DNA from: Gemmatimonadota bacterium
Lineage (GTDB): Bacteria; Gemmatimonadota; Gemmatimonadetes; Gemmatimonadales; Gemmatimonadaceae
Direction: 5' to 3'
Length of the DNA: 64,000 bases
Assembly (NCBI GenBank): GCA_027307165.1
Contig: DAHUXM010000021.1
Location: 186,001-250,000 of the forward strand
A program made the translations under genes and the position numbers. A model generated the notes under the pieces. The model was given only the letters and a program-made list of their open reading frames with translations, ran no database searches and had not been told where the DNA came from. Positions within the stretch are counted from its first letter, which is position 1, and the number at the start of each line of letters is the position of its first letter. This document shows positions 1,415 through 10,726 of the stretch, in pieces.

Positions 1415-3616
1415 TTACTTGACGCCGAACTGCTTGTTGAAGTAGCTGACCGTCGCCGAGTCAGCGCTCGCCCAGGACGCGTGTCGCAAGAAGCCATGGA
1501 TCTCGTCCGGGATCACCATTTCCTCGTAGCTCACTCCGGCGGTGGAAAGGCGGCGCGCAAGGTCGACTGTTTCGTGAAAGTGCACGTTGCGATCGTCGTC
1601 GCCCTGGATCAACAACACCGGACTCTTCCACGTTGCAATTGCCGACACCGGCGATGAAGTCCACGCGACGTCAAGCGCCTTCTTGATGTCACTCTTCTCG
1701 TAACGCAGCTGTGCGTTGAGGAGCCTGCTGCCAGATTCGTCCAGCCAGTTGTGAACGCCGTGCATGTCGACGCCGGCCTTGAAGATGTCGGAGTTGTGCG
1801 CGAGCGCCATTGCGGTCAGGAAGCCGCCGTACGATCCTCCCCAGATTCCGATGCGCCGCGAATCGACCGACGCGAGCAAGCGCAGATACTCGCCACCCGC
1901 CTTCACGTCCTGATACTCGGACGCGCCAGCCGATCCAGCGTGCGCCGGATGGTGGAAGTTGTGTCCGTAGCCAATTCCCAGTCTGTAGTTAACCGACAGC
2001 ACCACGTAGCCGTGATTCGCGAGATACTGATTGACCGCGTACGAGTTCGAGTAGTAATCCATGTAATGCCAGCCGAGCATCATCTGGCGTGGAGGACCGC
2101 CGTGCACGAAGACGATGCCCGGCTTCTTCGCGGATCCTGCGTCGTTGCGGTCGAACAGCTGACCATGCACAACGGTTCCGTCGGCAGCCCTGAAGGTGAC
2201 AGGCTTCGGGATCACGAGATCCGCCGTTGGGAACGACGCCGGAATCGCTTCGTCTGCAATGCCGCGGGGAGAGCCACTGCTGGTTGGAATCACCATCGGC
2301 AGAGGCGGCCTCTGCGCACCCGCACCGACGAACGCAATCGTGCTTCCGTCGCCTGTTACGAATGGCGTCCACTCCAGACCGGTGCCAGACGTGAGCGCGA
2401 CGGGCGTGGCTCGATCGACCGGCACGCGGAAGATGTGACGCCGGTCGCCGTCGCCCGGTGTGTTCCCCGTGTTGGCGCTGTACACCAGCGATTGGCCATC
2501 CGGCGAGAGAGTGATGAACTCCGCCATGAACGATCCCGGCGTGAGCAGCAATGGCGTCCCGCCCGTTTCGGCGACTGAATACAGATGCGGCCATCCGTCC
2601 GTATCGTTCAGGAAGACGATGCGTCCGCCGGCCGCCCACGAAAGGTTGGTACCTCCGTCAGTGGTCGGTACGGAGCTCAACAACGTCTTGGCGCTCTGCC
2701 ACACGAGTCGCCCCAAACCTGTTGAAGCATCGGCGGTCCAGATCGACCAGGGCCGCGGATGCAGTTCCAGTACTGTTTCCGGCGCACCACCAGTGCCCGG
2801 CGTGCGCACGAACGCGATGCGCGTTCCATCCGGCGACCATTTCGGTGACCGGTCGTGCGACGTCGACGGAGCGAGGTAACGGATCGGCGTCGAGTCCGAC
2901 GTAAAGATGCCGATGAAGCTGTGGTCGCCACGGTTGGAAACGAAGGCGAGCCGGTCGCCCTTCGGTGACCACGTGGGCGATCCATTGCTCCCTCGCGCGA
3001 AGAAGAGCTGCTTCGCCGCCGCCGATCCGTCGATCGGCACTGTCCAGATCGCCTGGCCTTTCGTGAATGCGACGCGATCGCCGCGCGGGGAGATCACGGG
3101 CTCGTCACCCTCTGCGAGCAGTTTCGGCGGCTGGTTCGACGCGCCATCCGCGTGCACCGCCCATATCTCGACCTTGGGCTTGACCGGCGAATGATCCGGA
3201 TCCGGCGGCAGCCCGCCCTCGGCGGCCCAGTTTGCGTCGTGGTCACCGCCCCGCACATATACCACCCACCTGCCGTCCGGCGATACAGCGAGATTCGTGA
3301 GCTCCTGTCCGTCGTCCGCACGATAATCCGTGATTGCGTGCGCCTTGAAGTCGGGCTCCTCAGCGGTCCAGATGTTCCGCACGCCGGATGCGTCGATGAC
3401 CCACGCAATTCGCGACGATTTCGGCGAAGCCGTCAGTCCCGTCGCGAACGGGTAGCTCAGCACCTGTTCCAGCGTAAACGACCCGCTTGGCGCCGCGGCG
3501 CCATTCGCCTGTGCACCGGCGGCGATGGTGATCGCTGCCGACAGGCAAAGCCCGGCGACGGACATGGCAATGGCGTTACGTATCCCAGCACGACTTCTTG
3601 GACGGAGAGCCAACAT
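1415..3616 (-). CDS. Secreted S9-family (prolyl oligopeptidase/DPP-like) serine peptidase
   Basis: A 733-residue protein with a hydrophobic N-terminal signal sequence ending near AGAQA. An N-terminal beta-propeller with WD40/TolB-like SPDGxxxxY blades runs to about residue 440. The C-terminal alpha/beta hydrolase carries the triad: Ser595 in GGSYGG, an Asp at about 675 in QGDDDRNV, and His707 in DEIHGF. S9 enzymes of this layout are exported peptidases that release dipeptides or acyl-amino acids. The ATG has an upstream AGAGGA on its own strand. It is divergent from the blaI-like gene and shares a 200-bp intergenic region with it. The exact substrate cannot be read from sequence. Confidence 0.9.
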   Translation of the reverse strand: MLALRPRSRAGIRNAIAMSVAGLCLSAAITIAAGAQANGAAAPSGSFTLEQVLSYPFATGLTASPKSSRIAWVIDASGVRNIWTAEEPDFKAHAITDYRADDGQELTNLAVSPDGRWVVYVRGGDHDANWAAEGGLPPDPDHSPVKPKVEIWAVHADGASNQPPKLLAEGDEPVISPRGDRVAFTKGQAIWTVPIDGSAAAKQLFFARGSNGSPTWSPKGDRLAFVSNRGDHSFIGIFTSDSTPIRYLAPSTSHDRSPKWSPDGTRIAFVRTPGTGGAPETVLELHPRPWSIWTADASTGLGRLVWQSAKTLLSSVPTTDGGTNLSWAAGGRIVFLNDTDGWPHLYSVAETGGTPLLLTPGSFMAEFITLSPDGQSLVYSANTGNTPGDGDRRHIFRVPVDRATPVALTSGTGLEWTPFVTGDGSTIAFVGAGAQRPPLPMVIPTSSGSPRGIADEAIPASFPTADLVIPKPVTFRAADGTVVHGQLFDRNDAGSAKKPGIVFVHGGPPRQMMLGWHYMDYYSNSYAVNQYLANHGYVVLSVNYRLGIGYGHNFHHPAHAGSAGASEYQDVKAGGEYLRLLASVDSRRIGIWGGSYGGFLTAMALAHNSDIFKAGVDMHGVHNWLDESGSRLLNAQLRYEKSDIKKALDVAWTSSPVSAIATWKSPVLLIQGDDDRNVHFHETVDLARRLSTAGVSYEEMVIPDEIHGFLRHASWASADSATVSYFNKQFGVK

Positions 3617-3733: not shown

Positions 3734-3761
3734 TTGACAGCCGGGAAGCAATGGTGAAAAT
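3734..3761 (+). promoter_or_regulatory. Sigma-70-like promoter of the blaI-like gene
   Basis: A perfect -35 box TTGACA (3734-3739) is followed 16 bases later by the -10-like GAAAAT (3756-3761, 4 of 6 consensus positions). Transcription would start near 3768, inside a long palindrome. This favours the ATG at 3819 over the TTG at 3771 as the translation start. Confidence 0.65.
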
Positions 3762-3781
3762 TCAACACAGTTGATTTTTCA
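3755..3781. promoter_or_regulatory. Near-perfect 27-bp palindrome, candidate BlaI-type operator
   Basis: The left arm TGAAAATTCAAC and right arm GTTGATTTTTCA are separated by ACA; 11 of the 12 base pairs are complementary. The palindrome covers the -10 box and the predicted transcription start of the BlaI-like gene. BlaI/MecI dimers are known to bind dyads of about this size at their own promoters. Autorepression through this site is therefore likely, but inferred. Confidence 0.65.
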
Positions 3782-3818
3782 GCACGACCAGGCCGCCCTT
3801 CATCAGTCGAGCATTCGC

Positions 3819-4226
3819 ATGGCTTCCAGGCGCACCGCAACAGCTGCTCCCGCCCCTTCGTTCTCCCGCCGCGAACGGCAGGTAATGGACATTCTGCACC
3901 GGCGCGGCGAGGCGACAGTCGCGGAAATCATGAACGATCTTCCCGATCCCCCGACCTATTCTGCAGTGCGCTCGGTGTTGCGCATACTCGCGGAGAAGGG
4001 CGCCATCCGCCATAAGGAAGATGGCCCGCGCTACGTCTACTCGCCGGCGCGGCCTACCGAAACAGCGCGCGAGGACGTTCTCGCACACGTCGTCAGAACT
4101 TACTTCGCGGGATCTCCGGAACAGGCGGTCACAGCGTTGCTCCGCATGTCCGACACTGACATGACCGAAGATGACGTGCAGCGCCATCGCGAAACGATTC
4201 GCCGCGCACGCCTGGAGGGAAGATGA
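3819..4226 (+). CDS. blaI: BlaI/MecI/CopY-family transcriptional repressor
   Basis: A 135-residue protein with a winged-helix N-terminus: SRRERQVMDILHRRGEATVAEI, then SAVRSVLRILAEKGAIRHKEDG. This is the penicillinase-repressor pattern. The C-terminal helix region would hold the dimer interface and the protease-sensitive segment. In the family, the repressor is inactivated when a BlaR1/MecR1-type M56 protease is triggered. The partner follows directly here: its ATG at 4223 overlaps this stop. The ATG at 3819 was chosen; a TTG at 3771 would lie within the operator and practically at the transcription start. No clear Shine-Dalgarno precedes 3819. Confidence 0.88.
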   Translation: MASRRTATAAPAPSFSRRERQVMDILHRRGEATVAEIMNDLPDPPTYSAVRSVLRILAEKGAIRHKEDGPRYVYSPARPTETAREDVLAHVVRTYFAGSPEQAVTALLRMSDTDMTEDDVQRHRETIRRARLEGR

Positions 4227-6403
4227 TCATGTCGCCACTTTCTCCTGCCAGCGTTGGACCTTTCCGCGGGGAAAACCTCTCACTGCTGATACTCATCGTG
4301 AAGGCGACGCTGATCCTGATCGGCGCGCTCGGGGTTACGCTCGCGATGCAACGCGCGGCGGCGGGCGCACGTCACCTCGTCTGGCTCGTTACGCTTGGTG
4401 CGCTGTTGCTCATTCCCGCGCTCACAGTGTGGGCACCGATCCATCTTCGGATTCTCCCGCCTCTGCATGCGACGAGCGGCGTGGTGTCGGATGCGGGCGT
4501 TACAGCCACGCGGCACGCTTCTGCGCTGCCGGGTGACGAGTCGGCAGCGGCAACGAAGCCGCTCGATCTCGCAGCGTCGCAACACGCCGTCGCTCCCGAG
4601 ACATCGCCGACGACTGAGACGTACAGCATTGCCGACCGTATACGCAACACAGATCTGTTGACGATCTTGCTCATCACCTGGCTCGCAGTCGTACTCGTGA
4701 TCACAGCCTCGCTCGCATTTGCAGCGCTGTCCCTGCGACGCATCGTTCGAAACAGCGTTCCTCTGACCGGGAGAGAATGGCTCGACACGGTGTGGGAGAT
4801 CTCCGATCGCATCGGGCTCGAGAAAGCGCCGCGGTTGTTGCAGAGCAGGGAAACGAAGATGCCATTCGCATGCGGTACGCTGCACCCGACTATCGTTCTT
4901 CCGGTCGAGAGCGAGGGATGGTCGCCGGAGCGGCGCAGTGCGGTACTGCTGCACGAGCTCGCGCACGTGCGCCGCAGGGATCTGGTCGGTCATACGCTCG
5001 GCCGCATCACGTGCGCGGTGTACTGGTTTCATCCTCTGGTCTGGACGGCAGCAAAGCGACTACGCTCCGAGAGCGAGCGTGCCTGCGACGATCTGGCCCT
5101 GATGTGTGGCACGCGTGCCGCGGATTACGCCGAGCATCTGCTCGACATCGTTACTTCCGTGCGCGGCGATCGCACGCCGATGGTCGCGCTCGCCATGGCG
5201 CGAAGGAAGGAATTCGAGGGTCGCATGCTCGCGATCCTCGATCCGCAGGCGCGGCGTTCGACGCCGGGTCGTTGGAAGACGGCTGCGCTCGTTGGTGCGC
5301 TCGGCACGCTTTCCATTGTAGTCGGTGCAGCTGCACCCATGCCGCGCGTCGCTCCTGCGACGCCATCACCGATCGTGCGTGCGCCTCTCGCCGACGCATC
5401 GCACGCCGCGATGACGCAGCAGGGTGTGACGTCGCCTCGCGGCGCGCTCCAATCAGCAGGCTCCGATCGGGCGGAAGACCACGGTGCGAGCAGCACGCTC
5501 GCTGACGCTGCGGCGCGATTCGGAATGAAGGTAGCTTCCAGCGTATTGTCAGACGCACAGTCCGGGTTGTCGACTATCGCGCCGAAGGTGAGCGTGCGCG
5601 CTTCGGATTCCGACGGTCGGACGAGCGAGATCGTGGTCAAGCCCGCCTTTTCGTTCGATGCGACCTTCGATTCGAAAACCCCGGACGAGCGTGCAGATCT
5701 GCTCGCGAAGGTTCTTGCGACCGACACGAACGCGGAATTGCGCAGAACGGCCGCGTGGGGACTCGCGAAGTACATCGAAAACCCGGTTGCATCCGCGGCG
5801 TTGACGCGTGCACTGCTCCACGATGCAAGCGCGTCGGTGCGGGAAACGGCAGCCTGGGCGCTCGCCCGCGATCATCGCAACGCCCCGCAGTCGGCCGTCA
5901 GTGCGCTCACGTCCGCGCTTCGCTCCGACGCCAGCGACTCAGTTCGCGCCACCGCTGCGTGGGCGCTGGGCAGCATTCACGATGACGCGGCAATTCCTGC
6001 GCTCACTGCGGCACTCGCCGACAGGAACGCCGACGTGCGTAGCAGGGCGGTGTGGGCGCTTGGGAGTGTGCGGCCGCGATCAGCGCCGAGCGCGCTCGTT
6101 GCGAAGCTGCACGATAGCGATCCGGATGTGCGGGCGCTCGTTGCATGGGCATTGTTCACGATCCGCGATACGACTTCCATTCCCGCACTGCAGGCCGCGC
6201 TCCGTACCGAGACCAACAAGGACATCCAGGTCGATTACATCCGCGCGCTCGGCGCGATGGGTGAACAGTCGCTGAGCGCCATTCGGAATCTGCTCGAGTC
6301 GTCGGATCCCAAGGTCAAGTCGATGGCGGTGGATGCGCTGGCCGGCGGTAATGCGACCGGCCCGTGGCCGTGGCCATGGCCGCAGCCGCGACCGTTCCCG
6401 TAG
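4223..6403 (+). CDS. M56 (BlaR1-like) membrane metalloprotease with C-terminal HEAT repeats
   Basis: A 726-residue protein. Hydrophobic segments lie at about residues 20-40, 48-70, 140-163 and 355-370. The M56 zinc motif HELAH is at 244-248, followed by WFHPLVW and ESERACDDLA, as in BlaR1/MecR1. The usual penicillin-binding sensor domain is absent. After a low-complexity linker, about six HEAT/PBS-lyase-type repeats with the core VRxxAAWALG occupy about residues 500-715. The last 14 residues are GPWPWPWPQPRPFP. The gene overlaps blaI, so repressor and protease form a translational pair. By analogy, signal binding outside the membrane would activate cleavage of the repressor; the ligand is unknown. 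See the findings on the shared tail. Confidence 0.85.
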   Translation: MIMSPLSPASVGPFRGENLSLLILIVKATLILIGALGVTLAMQRAAAGARHLVWLVTLGALLLIPALTVWAPIHLRILPPLHATSGVVSDAGVTATRHASALPGDESAAATKPLDLAASQHAVAPETSPTTETYSIADRIRNTDLLTILLITWLAVVLVITASLAFAALSLRRIVRNSVPLTGREWLDTVWEISDRIGLEKAPRLLQSRETKMPFACGTLHPTIVLPVESEGWSPERRSAVLLHELAHVRRRDLVGHTLGRITCAVYWFHPLVWTAAKRLRSESERACDDLALMCGTRAADYAEHLLDIVTSVRGDRTPMVALAMARRKEFEGRMLAILDPQARRSTPGRWKTAALVGALGTLSIVVGAAAPMPRVAPATPSPIVRAPLADASHAAMTQQGVTSPRGALQSAGSDRAEDHGASSTLADAAARFGMKVASSVLSDAQSGLSTIAPKVSVRASDSDGRTSEIVVKPAFSFDATFDSKTPDERADLLAKVLATDTNAELRRTAAWGLAKYIENPVASAALTRALLHDASASVRETAAWALARDHRNAPQSAVSALTSALRSDASDSVRATAAWALGSIHDDAAIPALTAALADRNADVRSRAVWALGSVRPRSAPSALVAKLHDSDPDVRALVAWALFTIRDTTSIPALQAALRTETNKDIQVDYIRALGAMGEQSLSAIRNLLESSDPKVKSMAVDALAGGNATGPWPWPWPQPRPFP

Positions 6404-6471
6404 CAGCCGTACAAGTGCGCGCGTAACCGGGCCCGAAGCGGCCACGCGCGCATGCTTTTGACCTGAAGTGC

Positions 6472-6481
6472 TGATTTTTCA
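6472..6481 (+). promoter_or_regulatory. TGATTTTTCA element matching one half of the blaI palindrome
   Basis: This 10-mer is identical to bases 3772-3781 of the blaI operator candidate. A TTGACC hexamer lies just upstream at 6458-6463. The opposite arm of the palindrome is not recognisable here, so it may be a half-site or coincidence. Confidence 0.3.
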
Positions 6482-6527
6482 CCATACAGCCCGGTACGCA
6501 GACATGGGCAATCACGGAGGAGGAACG

Positions 6528-7895
6528 ATGTTGAGAGTCATTGGAGCGGTTGCTGCCGCAGCGTTCGTGTCGACCGCAACTGCGGTCAGACACGACCATT
6601 CATCGCTCGCCGGCGTAGCCGGCGACACCGCGTCGTTCGACGTGAGCGCGCTGCTCACCGCTGCGCGCGGCGTTTCACCAAACGTATGCGCGCTCGCGGC
6701 GAGGGCCGTCGGCAACGGTAGTTGGGGGCGCTCCAGCGACGCGCCGGTGACACCGCTTGGCACGTCGGCGGACCTTCACGGTATGCTGGACTCCCGCGAT
6801 CTTCCTGCTGTCGACGTCACGAGGCTGATGGGTGCGCTCGGGTCGGACGATCCATGCGTGCGCGAGCTCTCGGTCCGTCTCATCGGCACCCAGAACAATT
6901 CGAGCGTCGCGCCCGAACTGCTCACGCGGCTCACATCGAGCAATGCGTCGCTCCGTGCGATGGCGGCATTCGGACTTGGTCTCGTGGATGCCAGGACCTC
7001 AGTGGATCAGCTCATCCACGCGCTCGGCGACGCAACGGCCGACGTGCGCGCCAACTCCGCGTGGGCGCTTGGCAGAATCGAGGATGGTCGCGCGCTGTCG
7101 TCGCTGGTCTCGCTGTTCAACGATGCGTCACCCGTAACTCGCGAAGCGGCGGTCATTGCCGTTGGCCGAATGGATTCCACGAGCACGTCGGCAGCCCTCA
7201 TACGCACGCTGCAACATGATGACGTCGCCTCCGTGCGCCGCGCAGCCGCATGGGCGCTCGGAACGCTGGACGCGAAAGATGGCGTAGCCGCACTCTCCAC
7301 GACGCTCGCCGACGACAGCGATGCGCGAGTGCGCGAGATGAGCGCATGGGCGCTTGGCAACCTCGACGACAACGCTGGTGCGAGCGCGCTGCAGCGTGCG
7401 CTGCAAAAGGATTCTGATGACAGGGTGCGTGAATCCGCCGCGTGGGCGCTCGGGGAGCTCGGGGACGCATCCTCCACCGACGCCCTTGCAAGTGCCACCG
7501 AGTCAGACAAGAGTGTGAGGGTGCGTGGTACAGCGGCGTGGGCAATCGGTCAGATCGGACATGCCGATCGTCGTGCGGTTGCGGGCCTGACGCATCTGCT
7601 CAAGGAGTCCGATGACAACGTACGGCTCCGCGCGGCGTGGGCGCTGGGCCAGATCGAGGACAGTACTGCACTTCCGGAGATCGATTCCGCCCTCGGCGTC
7701 GAAAAGAACTCCGACGTGCGGCGGGCGCTGATTCGCGCTCTCTCCAAATCGGGCGGCAATACCGCCGCGAGAATGCGCGCGCTGATCGACTCGAAGGATC
7801 CGCAGGTGCGCGAGGCCGCCGTTCGCTCGCTCGCTGGCGGGCGCGCATTCGGCCCATGGCCGTGGCCGGCGCCGCGACCGCGGCCATGGCCGTAA
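6528..7895 (+). CDS. Secreted HEAT-repeat protein with Trp-Pro-rich C-terminal tail
   Basis: A 455-residue protein. The ATG at 6528 is chosen because GGAGGAGG lies five bases upstream and it gives a clean signal peptide (MLRVIGAVAAAAFVSTATA); a GTG at 6468 has neither. From about residue 80 the protein consists of about ten HEAT repeats of roughly 31 residues, most with the core VRxxAAWALGxL. It ends GPWPWPAPRPRPWP, almost the same as the tail of the preceding M56 protease, and both are preceded by a LAGG sequence. HEAT solenoids usually bind proteins or peptides. Function is unknown; the shared repeats, tail and operon position suggest a partner or decoy of the M56 sensor. Confidence 0.85.
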   Translation: MLRVIGAVAAAAFVSTATAVRHDHSSLAGVAGDTASFDVSALLTAARGVSPNVCALAARAVGNGSWGRSSDAPVTPLGTSADLHGMLDSRDLPAVDVTRLMGALGSDDPCVRELSVRLIGTQNNSSVAPELLTRLTSSNASLRAMAAFGLGLVDARTSVDQLIHALGDATADVRANSAWALGRIEDGRALSSLVSLFNDASPVTREAAVIAVGRMDSTSTSAALIRTLQHDDVASVRRAAAWALGTLDAKDGVAALSTTLADDSDARVREMSAWALGNLDDNAGASALQRALQKDSDDRVRESAAWALGELGDASSTDALASATESDKSVRVRGTAAWAIGQIGHADRRAVAGLTHLLKESDDNVRLRAAWALGQIEDSTALPEIDSALGVEKNSDVRRALIRALSKSGGNTAARMRALIDSKDPQVREAAVRSLAGGRAFGPWPWPAPRPRPWP

Positions 7896-7984: not shown

Positions 7985-10726
7985 ATGCACGTATATCGGT
8001 CCGCAGGTGTGGCGTTGCTCGCCCTCGCACCAGTCGCAGTTCACTCTCAGGAAACTGCCACGTCGTCGATTCATCCGCGCACACCGCCGGTGGCGGTCGC
8101 GGCGCGGCGCGAAGGACCCATCACACTGGACGGGAAGCTTGACGACGCTGCATGGAAGGCAGCGACACCGATAACAAAGTTCATACAGCAGCAACCGCAC
8201 GAAGGCCTGCCCGCGACTCAAGCCACCGAGATTCGCATTCTATATGACGATCAGGCCCTGTATATCGGAGCGCGCGTGAACGACTCGCTCGGGGCGAAGG
8301 GAATTCGCGCTCCGCTGGCGCGACGCGACCAGCTGCTGGATGCCAATGGCAACAACGGCTCGTTCAATTCGTTGACGACGGACAAGATCATAGTTGTGCT
8401 CGACCCGTACCACAATCACATCGACGAGGCCTGGTTCGAGGTGAATCCGCAGGGCGTCAAGGGCGATCAGTTCGACGGCGATCCGTCCTGGGATCCCATA
8501 TGGGAGGCCGCGACGCACGTCGATTCACTCGGCTGGACCGCGGAGATGCGTATCCCGTTTTCGCAGCTGCGATTCTCGCGTGACTCTGTGCAGACGTGGG
8601 GAATGGAAGTCTGGCGCTACGTGGACCGGCTCAACGAGCAGGATATGTGGGCCTACTGGAAAACGAGCGAGTCTGGAGGACCGGCGTTCTTCGGTCATCT
8701 CACGGGTCTCAAGATCGGCGCGCAGCCGCGTCAATTCGAGCTGCTGCCGTACGTCCTGAGCGGTGTGCACTCCAAGTACGCGCCGCCCGCAGATCCATTC
8801 CACAAGTCGACGTCGACCAACCTCGCGACGGGCATGGACCTCAAGTATCTGTTGACATCCAATCTCACGCTCGATGCAACGGTCAATCCCGACTTCGGTC
8901 AGGTGGAAGTCGATCCCGCGACAATCAATCTGTCCGCGTACGAAACGTACTACGACGAGAAGCGCCCGTTCTTCGTGTCGGGTAGCAGCGCATTCGACTT
9001 CGGCGGAATGAACTGCAACTTCTGCAGCAATACTTCCAATCTCGGCCTCTTCTATTCCAGACGCATTGGCAGAGCGCCGCAGCTGAACAGCTTCGTCAGC
9101 GGTCTCTCGGCGTTCAGCGACCTGCCCAATACCACGTCGATACTTGGCGCTGCCAAGATTACTGGCCGCACCGGGGGTGGCATCACCGTCGGCATGCTCG
9201 ACGCGCTTACAAACCGGGAGAGCGCCGAGTACATCCCGACGCCAGGCGGACCCACGCTGACGCAGCCGGTCGAGCCGCTCAGCAACTATTTCGTCGGCAG
9301 GGCGAAGAAGGACCTGCGTGAGGGAGCAACGACCATCGGCGGAATGTTCACGTCCGTCGCGCGGCAGATGAACGACACGATTCTGTCCGATCGTCTGCGC
9401 AGTCATGCCGAAGCCGTCGGACTCGATTGGGATCATCGATGGAGTCATCGTGACTACGACTGGATGGGATCGATTGCCGCGTCCAACGTCGCCGGATCGA
9501 CACAGGCGATCGGACTGACCGAGCAGTCGAGCGCACATTACTTCCAGCGGCCGGACCGCCGGGTTCGGAGCGACGGACTGTTCGGTGCGGCTTACGACAG
9601 CAATGCGACGTCGCTGCGCGGATATGGGCTGTATACGCGCGTCGCAAAGACCAGCGGCGACTGGTTCTGGGAAACGGCCCAGAACTGGCGCAGCCCCGGG
9701 TTCGAAGTGAACGATCTGTCGTATCTCGACCGCGCCGACTACAAGTGGATGAACTTCAACGTTGGTCGCAACTGGAGTCTCCCGGGAAGCTGGTATCGCA
9801 GCGCCATGCTCATGGCGGGCGGCCAGCAGCAATTCAACTACGACGGTGATCGCACGGATCAGCAAGGGCAGGTCTTCACACAGATCAATTTTCTCAACTA
9901 CTGGAGACTGCGCAGCTTCTACATATATCATCCGGCTGTAATGGATGATCGCCTGACGCGTGGTGGACCGGTGGTCATGCGTAGCGGCTACAAGGTCATG
10001 ATGGGTCAGGTCTCGACAGATCCTCGCGCGCGCGCCGTGTTCGACGTCTCCGTTCAGGGCGGGCCGAGCGTCGGTGGCAAGGGTCACCAGCTGTCGATCG
10101 CTCCCGGAATCGCACTCAAGCCGGCGTCCAGCATCTTCGTCAGCCTTACGCCGACGTTCAGCTCGAACGAGGACGACGCGCAGTACGTGACCACGGAGAC
10201 CGACCCGACGGCGACGGCGTTTTACGGCCATCGCTACGTGTTCGCCTATCTCAGGGCTGAGACATGGTCGCTCGACACGCGCATCAACTGGACCTTCACC
10301 CCGAATCTCACGCTGCAGCTGTACGCGCAGCCCTACTTCTCGAGCGGCGACTACGCGTCGTTCCGTGAATTCGCGGCGCCCCGTGCACTCACGAAAGTCA
10401 TCTACGGCAAGGATGCCGGCACCATCGTACGCACGCCGGCAACTGCGACGTCCGGAGCGACGTACACCGTCGATCCTGACGGCGCGGGACCAGCGAAGCC
10501 CTTCAGCTTCGGCGATCCGAACTTCGCGTATCGCTCCCTGATCGGAAACGCGGTGCTGCGGTGGGAGTACCGTCCAGGCTCGACAGTGTTCTTCGTCTGG
10601 ACTCAGACGCGCTCCGGCACAAATGACGTCGGAAATTTCGACTTCACACGCGATCGCACTGCACTTCTGAGCGACAGACCGACGAACATTTTCCAGATCA
10701 AGGTGAATTACTGGTTGGGAAGATAG
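7985..10726 (+). CDS. DUF5916 outer-membrane protein with CBM9-like N-terminal domain
   Basis: A 913-residue exported protein. The signal sequence ends near VAVHSQ. The next about 180 residues form a carbohydrate-binding family 9-like domain starting ITLDGKLDDAAWKAA. The remaining about 690 residues are rich in alternating aromatic/polar strands, as in the DUF5916 beta-barrel family, which is frequent in Bacteroidota and Gemmatimonadota. The molecular role of the family is not established; a surface glycan- or peptide-related function is only a guess. The ATG at 7985 was chosen to give the signal peptide; the frame extends further upstream into the HEAT gene. An 89-base gap separates it from that gene, so co-transcription is possible. 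Confidence 0.85.
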   Translation: MHVYRSAGVALLALAPVAVHSQETATSSIHPRTPPVAVAARREGPITLDGKLDDAAWKAATPITKFIQQQPHEGLPATQATEIRILYDDQALYIGARVNDSLGAKGIRAPLARRDQLLDANGNNGSFNSLTTDKIIVVLDPYHNHIDEAWFEVNPQGVKGDQFDGDPSWDPIWEAATHVDSLGWTAEMRIPFSQLRFSRDSVQTWGMEVWRYVDRLNEQDMWAYWKTSESGGPAFFGHLTGLKIGAQPRQFELLPYVLSGVHSKYAPPADPFHKSTSTNLATGMDLKYLLTSNLTLDATVNPDFGQVEVDPATINLSAYETYYDEKRPFFVSGSSAFDFGGMNCNFCSNTSNLGLFYSRRIGRAPQLNSFVSGLSAFSDLPNTTSILGAAKITGRTGGGITVGMLDALTNRESAEYIPTPGGPTLTQPVEPLSNYFVGRAKKDLREGATTIGGMFTSVARQMNDTILSDRLRSHAEAVGLDWDHRWSHRDYDWMGSIAASNVAGSTQAIGLTEQSSAHYFQRPDRRVRSDGLFGAAYDSNATSLRGYGLYTRVAKTSGDWFWETAQNWRSPGFEVNDLSYLDRADYKWMNFNVGRNWSLPGSWYRSAMLMAGGQQQFNYDGDRTDQQGQVFTQINFLNYWRLRSFYIYHPAVMDDRLTRGGPVVMRSGYKVMMGQVSTDPRARAVFDVSVQGGPSVGGKGHQLSIAPGIALKPASSIFVSLTPTFSSNEDDAQYVTTETDPTATAFYGHRYVFAYLRAETWSLDTRINWTFTPNLTLQLYAQPYFSSGDYASFREFAAPRALTKVIYGKDAGTIVRTPATATSGATYTVDPDGAGPAKPFSFGDPNFAYRSLIGNAVLRWEYRPGSTVFFVWTQTRSGTNDVGNFDFTRDRTALLSDRPTNIFQIKVNYWLGR

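What the first reader, a model, noticed from the sequence alone, without database searches (positions are those of the whole stretch)
3755..7895. BlaI/M56 signalling pair whose sensor part is HEAT repeats, followed by a free secreted HEAT protein
In BlaR1/MecR1 the M56 protease carries a penicillin-binding sensor domain. Here (seen) the same region is a linker plus about six HEAT repeats, with the repressor directly upstream and a second, signal-peptide-bearing protein of about ten HEAT repeats directly downstream. Established: M56 proteases inactivate BlaI-type repressors after an outside signal. Inference: the HEAT solenoid binds a protein or peptide ligand, perhaps an envelope component, and the free HEAT protein competes with or delivers that ligand. 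This would be a sensing pathway different from beta-lactam sensing.
Basis: partly seen in the sequence, partly recalled or inferred. Interest (0 to 1): 0.7.

Follow-up and report, generated by a model that had tools for sequence, protein, structure and literature searches.

The report
BlaI–M56 sensor with HEAT-repeat receptor
A soil bacterium of the phylum Gemmatimonadota carries a relative of the penicillin-sensing BlaI/BlaR1 switch whose receptor part has been replaced by a HEAT-repeat arm, and the DNA signature of its repressor indicates that the switch controls itself, a secreted HEAT protein and often a probable outer-membrane protein.

Summary
A BlaI-type repressor (3819-4226), an M56 protease with seven C-terminal HEAT repeats (4223-6403) and a secreted HEAT protein (6528-7895) are real and conserved across the family and order. 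The model matches the BlaR1 protease fold; no penicillin-binding domain remains.

A 16-bp dyad, TGYTGAWWWWTCARCA, occurs three times in the window (0 expected): twice on the blaI promoter, once before the free HEAT gene. It recurs before blaI in 19 of 19 and before the free HEAT gene in 23 of 23 assessable relatives, is otherwise rare in whole genomes, and its half-site follows the BlaI recognition helix. Other genomic sites point mainly to CBM9-DUF5916 genes (probable outer-membrane barrels); in the window one follows the free HEAT gene.

Both HEAT proteins share a tail, PWPWPxPRPRPFP, and an invariant Trp ladder at the position that forms the binding face of alphaRep HEAT binders.

Best reading: a BlaR1-like protease switch with a protein- or peptide-sensing HEAT receptor; the free HEAT protein is an induced soluble copy of the receptor, probably feedback. 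The signal is unknown. New variant of a known kind.

The parts
3734..3762 (+). Promoter of blaI-m56: TTGACA, then a -10 inside operator 1
   Evidence: best promoter-like site of the region, 10 of 12; same TTGACA plus operator layout in relatives
3752..3767 (+). BlaI operator 1, TGGTGAAAATTCAACA
   Evidence: 1 mismatch to TGYTGAWWWWTCARCA; 0.00 expected in shuffled window
3769..3784 (+). BlaI operator 2, AGTTGATTTTTCAGCA
   Evidence: tandem copies 17 bp apart in many relatives
3819..4226 (+). BlaI-type winged-helix repressor
   Evidence: Penicillinase_R E=6.6e-24; recognition helix PTYSAVRS goes with the operator type
4223..6403 (+). M56 membrane protease: four TM helices, HELAH at residues 244-248, long linker, seven HEAT repeats, tail GPWPWPWPQPRPFP
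   Evidence: 8ext BlaR1 Z 17.9 over model 18-332; alphaRep Z about 25 over 487-709
6469..6484 (+). BlaI operator 3, TGCTGATTTTTCACCA, just after TTGACC at 6458-6463, before the free HEAT gene
   Evidence: conserved at this place in 23 of 23 relatives
6528..7895 (+). Secreted free HEAT protein with an N-terminal hydrophobic signal-like segment, two invariant Cys, tail GPWPWPAPRPRPWP
   Evidence: HEAT_2 E=1.1e-84; alignment A4
7985..10726 (+). CBM9-DUF5916 protein, probable outer-membrane beta-barrel; 90 bp after the free HEAT gene with no operator of its own, so probably one transcript with it
   Evidence: DUF5916 E=5.6e-62 and CBM9_1 E=1e-8 (on an extended frame); homologues elsewhere carry the operator

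Best explanation
This is a BlaR1-like receptor-protease switch with a new kind of receptor. BlaI dimers sit on the dyad TGYTGAWWWWTCARCA and repress blaI-m56, the free HEAT gene (with the CBM9-DUF5916 gene behind it here) and, in this genome, a second CBM9-DUF5916 gene on contig C1 (wiring: inferred from conserved operators). The M56 protein spans the inner membrane four times with its zinc site inside and its HEAT solenoid in the periplasm (homology and model; the orientation follows BlaR1). When the HEAT solenoid binds its protein or peptide ligand, the M56 site inactivates BlaI and the regulon is switched on (inferred from BlaR1/MecR1). The receptor hangs on an about 100-residue flexible linker, so the signal is more likely passed by capture, clustering or docking on the membrane part than by rigid allostery (inferred). 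The free HEAT protein is an old duplicate of the receptor arm with the same Trp-ladder groove and the same PWPWPxPRPRPFP tail; being induced by the switch it most likely binds the same partner in the periplasm and dampens or buffers the signal (inferred, the weakest step, about 0.4 on its own).
For: Domains. BlaR1 cryo-EM 8ext matches the model over 243 residues at Z 17.9, rmsd 3.5; alphaRep HEAT proteins match residues 487-709 at Z about 25. Operator: 3 sites in the window against 0.00 expected; before blaI in 19 of 19 and before the free HEAT gene in 23 of 23 assessable loci, five of the latter at 2 mismatches. In the own genome the only other sites with at most 1 mismatch are three in front of a DUF5916 gene. 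24 relatives have only 2-7 sites each, with 8 hits in all for the reversed control pattern; two genomes with a different BlaI type have none. Operator half-site and recognition helix change together: PTYSAVRS with TGYTGA, PSYSAVRA with TGCTAG, PSYSTARK with TGCGAA. Of 7 out-of-locus tandem site pairs, 6 precede DUF5916 genes or a remnant of one, although a genome holds only about 2-16 DUF5916 matches. Sensor and free HEAT arms form separate branches, so they look like an old duplication kept side by side. Tails conserved in both; Trp ladder 24-25 of 25 and 22 of 22.
Against: No expression, binding or cleavage data exist. DUF5916 is a target in only about half of the genomes with the system; elsewhere only blaI-m56 and the free HEAT gene carry sites. 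The feedback role of the free HEAT protein is not tested and it could instead be an effector. Membrane orientation rests on homology.
Confidence: 0.72

Rival explanations
1. The system is an envelope-stress monitor of outer-membrane barrel assembly: the HEAT groove captures unassembled CBM9-DUF5916 protein or its C-terminal strand, and the free HEAT protein is a periplasmic chaperone for it.
For: DUF5916 genes are the main conserved target outside the locus and lie next to several BlaI-M56 pairs, even ones without HEAT; regulated DUF5916 proteins end in a strand such as NTFLVKxSYWLN; Foldseek hits of the weak model are nearly all outer-membrane barrels.
Against: About half of the genomes with the system show no DUF5916 target; DUF5916 linked to M56 proteins without HEAT suggests that DUF5916 is an output, not the ligand; the DUF5916 model is poor (pLDDT 49).
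Confidence: 0.2
2. The free HEAT protein is a secreted effector, for example an envelope-binding or inhibitor protein, and the receptor is tuned to the same target; tail and groove bind an outside partner.
For: It has its own operator-controlled promoter and is the most constant target besides blaI-m56 itself.
Against: It has no catalytic or known effector domain and is an old duplicate of the receptor arm with the same tail.
Confidence: 0.25
3. It is an ordinary beta-lactam responsive BlaR1 system with a divergent sensor.
For: Pfam M56 and BlaI hits; NCBIfam blaR1_generic at 93 bits. One relative has a single operator before a PF00144 serine hydrolase gene (L100).
Against: The blaR1_generic cut-off is 400 bits; the sensor part is fully explained by HEAT repeats, without K[ST]G or [SY]xN motifs; no beta-lactamase gene in the conserved regulon.
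Confidence: 0.04

Closest known systems
BlaI/BlaR1 and MecI/MecR1 of Staphylococcus (structure 8ext/8exs)
   Same: Repressor and M56 protease in one operon; four TM helices; HExxH zinc site; same protease fold (Z 17.9); operators on the promoter, autoregulation and a separately controlled target gene
   Different: Sensor is a HEAT solenoid on a long linker, no penicillin-binding domain; operator sequence is TGYTGAWWWWTCARCA; targets are a secreted HEAT protein and CBM9-DUF5916 proteins, not a beta-lactamase
alphaRep / HEAT_PBS repeat proteins (3ltj, 6gwc, 4jw2)
   Same: Same helix-pair repeats, Z about 25, 33-34% identity
   Different: alphaRep is artificial; the binding-face position 26 is varied there but is an invariant Trp in nearly every repeat here; the tail is absent
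Other Gemmatimonadota BlaI-M56 pairs (L157, L062, L063)
   Same: BlaI and M56 next to a CBM9-DUF5916 gene
   Different: No HEAT domain found by Pfam in L157 and L062; the L062/L063 type has another operator
Importin-alpha and armadillo peptide binders
   Same: Alpha-solenoid with a Trp ladder; comparable only as a way of binding extended peptides (own knowledge)
   Different: No shared family shown; periplasmic, bacterial HEAT repeats

Membership tests
BlaI/MecI repressors (PF03965) | Penicillinase_R winged-helix domain over the curated cut-off | tested here: met
   84.9 bits against 22.6
BlaI/MecI repressors (PF03965) | Dyad operators over its own promoter | tested here: met
   operators 3752-3784 over the -10, conserved in 19 of 19 loci; by sequence only, binding not tested
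BlaI/MecI repressors (PF03965) | Inactivated by the partner protease | not testable with these tools
   needs biochemistry
M56 peptidases (BlaR1 type) | PF05569 over cut-off, HExxH and BlaR1-like membrane protease fold | tested here: met
   120.8 bits against 31; HELAH and ESERACDD nearly or fully invariant; 8ext Z 17.9 over 243 residues
BlaR1/MecR1 beta-lactam sensors | C-terminal penicillin-binding sensor domain | tested here: not met
   HEAT only; no K[ST]G or [SY]xN motifs; blaR1_generic 93 bits against a cut-off of 400
HEAT repeat proteins | Tandem HEAT helix pairs over the Pfam cut-off | tested here: met
   HEAT_2 115.4 and 275.9 bits against 27.7; seven pairs in the model
Outer-membrane beta-barrels (for CBM9-DUF5916) | Closed transmembrane beta-barrel | tested here: inconclusive
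   model pLDDT 49, Foldseek list mostly outer-membrane barrels

The most novel reading that the evidence does not exclude
The circuit reads itself through a peptide code: the PWPWPxPRPRPFP tail of the free HEAT protein docks into the invariant Trp-ladder groove of the receptor arm (and the receptor's tail into the free protein's groove), so that the ratio of free to receptor-bound tails, displaced by a proline-rich envelope or neighbour-derived peptide, sets protease activity. It would be a bacterial transmembrane receptor that recognises a linear Pro/Trp/Arg motif by an alpha-solenoid.
Probability: 0.15. Interest if true: 0.85.

Novelty: new variant of a known kind. Interest (0 to 1): 0.62.

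Why it matters
M56 receptors are known almost only from beta-lactam sensing. Here the same protease-repressor chassis has a sensor suited to protein or peptide recognition, with a defined operator and regulon, so its signal can be hunted with a simple reporter. It also gives a first regulatory context to CBM9-DUF5916 proteins, for which no paper was found in the library, and shows a way by which BlaI-M56 systems diversify in a phylum with hardly any known signalling biology.

Tried and rejected
Hidden transpeptidase: rejected. Chance association of the free HEAT gene: rejected. The tail as a general sorting tag: the encoding pattern CCNTGGCCNTGGCCN occurs in the genome only in these two tails and once more, on the other strand of another contig, in a non-tail context, so it is specific to the pair. 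All DUF5916 genes as targets: rejected, 39 of 40 other upstream regions have best sites with 4-8 mismatches; only G016 contig C8 has a 2-mismatch site at its start. Locus-by-locus copying between receptor and free HEAT arms: not supported, they separate in the tree (support only 70/72). Trp ladder as a strict partner of the tail: not clean, tailless receptors L142 and L165 also have it while L146 and L150 mostly lack it. Sequence search of DUF5916 against solved structures gave nothing but a weak CBM9 hit. Literature: no paper on M56-HEAT or DUF5916 found. Classical terminator between m56 and the free HEAT gene: the scan found none; a GC-rich hairpin is only modestly better than shuffles (z -1.66).

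Full report
Observation. The window lies in a Gemmatimonadota genome (G000:C25:186001-250000; relatives with named records are Gemmatimonadaceae and Gemmatimonadales). The three genes of the finding are real. BlaI gives Penicillinase_R at E=6.6e-24; the next protein gives Peptidase_M56 at E=8.3e-35 followed by HEAT_2 at 1.4e-33; the third is HEAT nearly throughout, HEAT_2 E=1.2e-83. I place the starts at ATG 3819 and ATG 6528 because the longer ORFs run through the operators described below and a good ribosome-binding sequence precedes 6528.

Anatomy of the receptor. AlphaFold2 on 25 relatives gives mean pLDDT 76.7 with helices at 17-41, 47-70, 145-177 and 350-369 as TM candidates, a protease part between the third and fourth, a disordered linker at 385-484, and seven HEAT helix pairs at 489-708. 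VIA-align matches residues 18-332 to BlaR1 (8ext, Z 17.9, rmsd 3.5, 243 residues) and 487-709 to alphaRep HEAT proteins (Z about 25). HELAH and ESERACDD are nearly or fully invariant. There is no K[ST]G or [SY]xN motif beyond residue 372. So the chassis is BlaR1-like and the sensor is not.

Conservation. A search of 99 relatives finds full-length relatives in many genera, and in most of these the free HEAT protein follows directly downstream. In the loci that are not cut by a contig end, BlaI precedes M56. Both HEAT proteins end in a conserved tail, consensus GPWPWPWPxPRPFP in the receptor and PWPWPWPRPRPFP in the free protein. In this genome the coding pattern of that tail occurs nowhere else as a tail. 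The position between AA and AL of the repeats is Trp in 24-25 of 25 receptors in five repeats and in 22 of 22 free proteins in six. In alphaRep proteins this is variable position 26, part of the concave binding face (PMC3754942; I read the register off the alignments). A tree of the last 225 residues puts receptors and free proteins on two sides of one branch (support 70/72): probably an old duplication, both copies kept.

Operator and regulon. Upstream of blaI lie two dyads and upstream of the free HEAT gene one, TGYTGAWWWWTCARCA; three matches with at most one mismatch in 64 kb, 0.00 expected. The blaI pair overlaps the -10 of the best promoter-like site; the third lies just after a TTGACC, where a -35 hexamer would be. 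Among named-genome loci with the tail, 19 of 19 assessable have the site before blaI (a 20th is cut by the contig end) and 23 of 23 have it before the free HEAT gene, 18 with at most one mismatch and five with two. These loci are related, so they are not 23 independent events. In the own genome the only other sites with at most one mismatch are three clustered at C1:20433-20574, before a CBM9-DUF5916 gene. In 24 relatives there are 2-7 sites per genome; the reversed pattern gives 8 in all. Two genomes whose M56-HEAT is of another subtype and whose BlaI is of another type have none. Recognition helix and half-site change together. Together this makes BlaI the likely reader of the dyad.

Targets. 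Out-of-locus tandem pairs were found in seven genomes; six precede DUF5916 genes (one a remnant, in G002) and one precedes a 239-residue protein of no family. A single site precedes a further DUF5916 gene in G053, one in G017 and, with two mismatches, one in G016. In the window's own genus, in G033, G025, G075 and in L132 a DUF5916 gene directly follows the free HEAT gene. Genomes hold roughly 2-16 DUF5916 matches, and 39 of 40 other DUF5916 upstream regions have only background similarity. About half of the genomes show no DUF5916 target, so the core regulon is blaI-m56 and the free HEAT gene. The remaining single sites (MacB/FtsX permease, serine hydrolase, amidohydrolase, M1-like) are about as many as chance gives. 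DUF5916 also lies next to other BlaI-M56 pairs without HEAT (L062, L063, L157). The DUF5916 protein is probably an outer-membrane barrel, but my model is poor and the Foldseek list is only a hint.

Mechanism. Shown or strongly supported: gene order, domains, fold of the protease part, conserved operator and hence co-regulation of the free HEAT gene. Inferred from BlaR1/MecR1 biology: receptor outside, zinc site inside, BlaI inactivation on signal. Inferred by me: HEAT groove binds a protein or peptide; the long disordered linker argues for capture or clustering; the free HEAT protein, an induced soluble copy of the receptor arm with the same tail, works as feedback on the same ligand. Rivals are given in their field. 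The tail and Trp ladder suggest a direct tail-in-groove contact, which I offer only as the novel case.

Standing against known systems. It works like BlaI/BlaR1 and belongs to the PF03965 and PF05569 families; it fails the defining sensor test of BlaR1/MecR1. I therefore call it a new variant of a known kind.

Noticed in passing
window 1415-3616: A secreted S9 prolyl-peptidase-like gene is divergent from blaI and shares the operator-bearing intergenic region; found there only in the same genus, so it may be a genus-specific extra target.
   Followed up: partly
L092:8434-8575 (G000:C1:20433-20574): Three operators before a DUF5916 gene, arranged like a blaI promoter followed by a free-HEAT promoter about 100 bp later; looks like the scar of a lost blaI-m56 copy.
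   Followed up: partly
L061 (G003:C97): A same-genus relative keeps blaI, operators and DUF5916 but only fragments of M56-HEAT and no free HEAT gene: a decaying locus, or an assembly gap.
   Followed up: partly
L096:8127-8660 (G002:C5): Operator pair in front of a DUF5916 gene reduced to its two ends: an internal deletion.
   Followed up: partly
L097:8567-9324 (G025:C1): Tandem operator pair before a 239-residue protein with no Pfam family; an unexplained regulon member.
   Followed up: no
L157, L062, L063, L160: BlaI-M56 pairs, at least L157 and L062 without a HEAT sensor, that lie next to CBM9-DUF5916 genes, one in Candidatus Eisenbacteria (L160); BlaI-M56 control of DUF5916 may be wider than the HEAT version.
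   Followed up: partly
window 6528-7895, residues 54 and 110: Two invariant cysteines in the N-terminal part of the free HEAT protein, absent from the receptor arm; a likely disulfide and a domain of its own.
   Followed up: no
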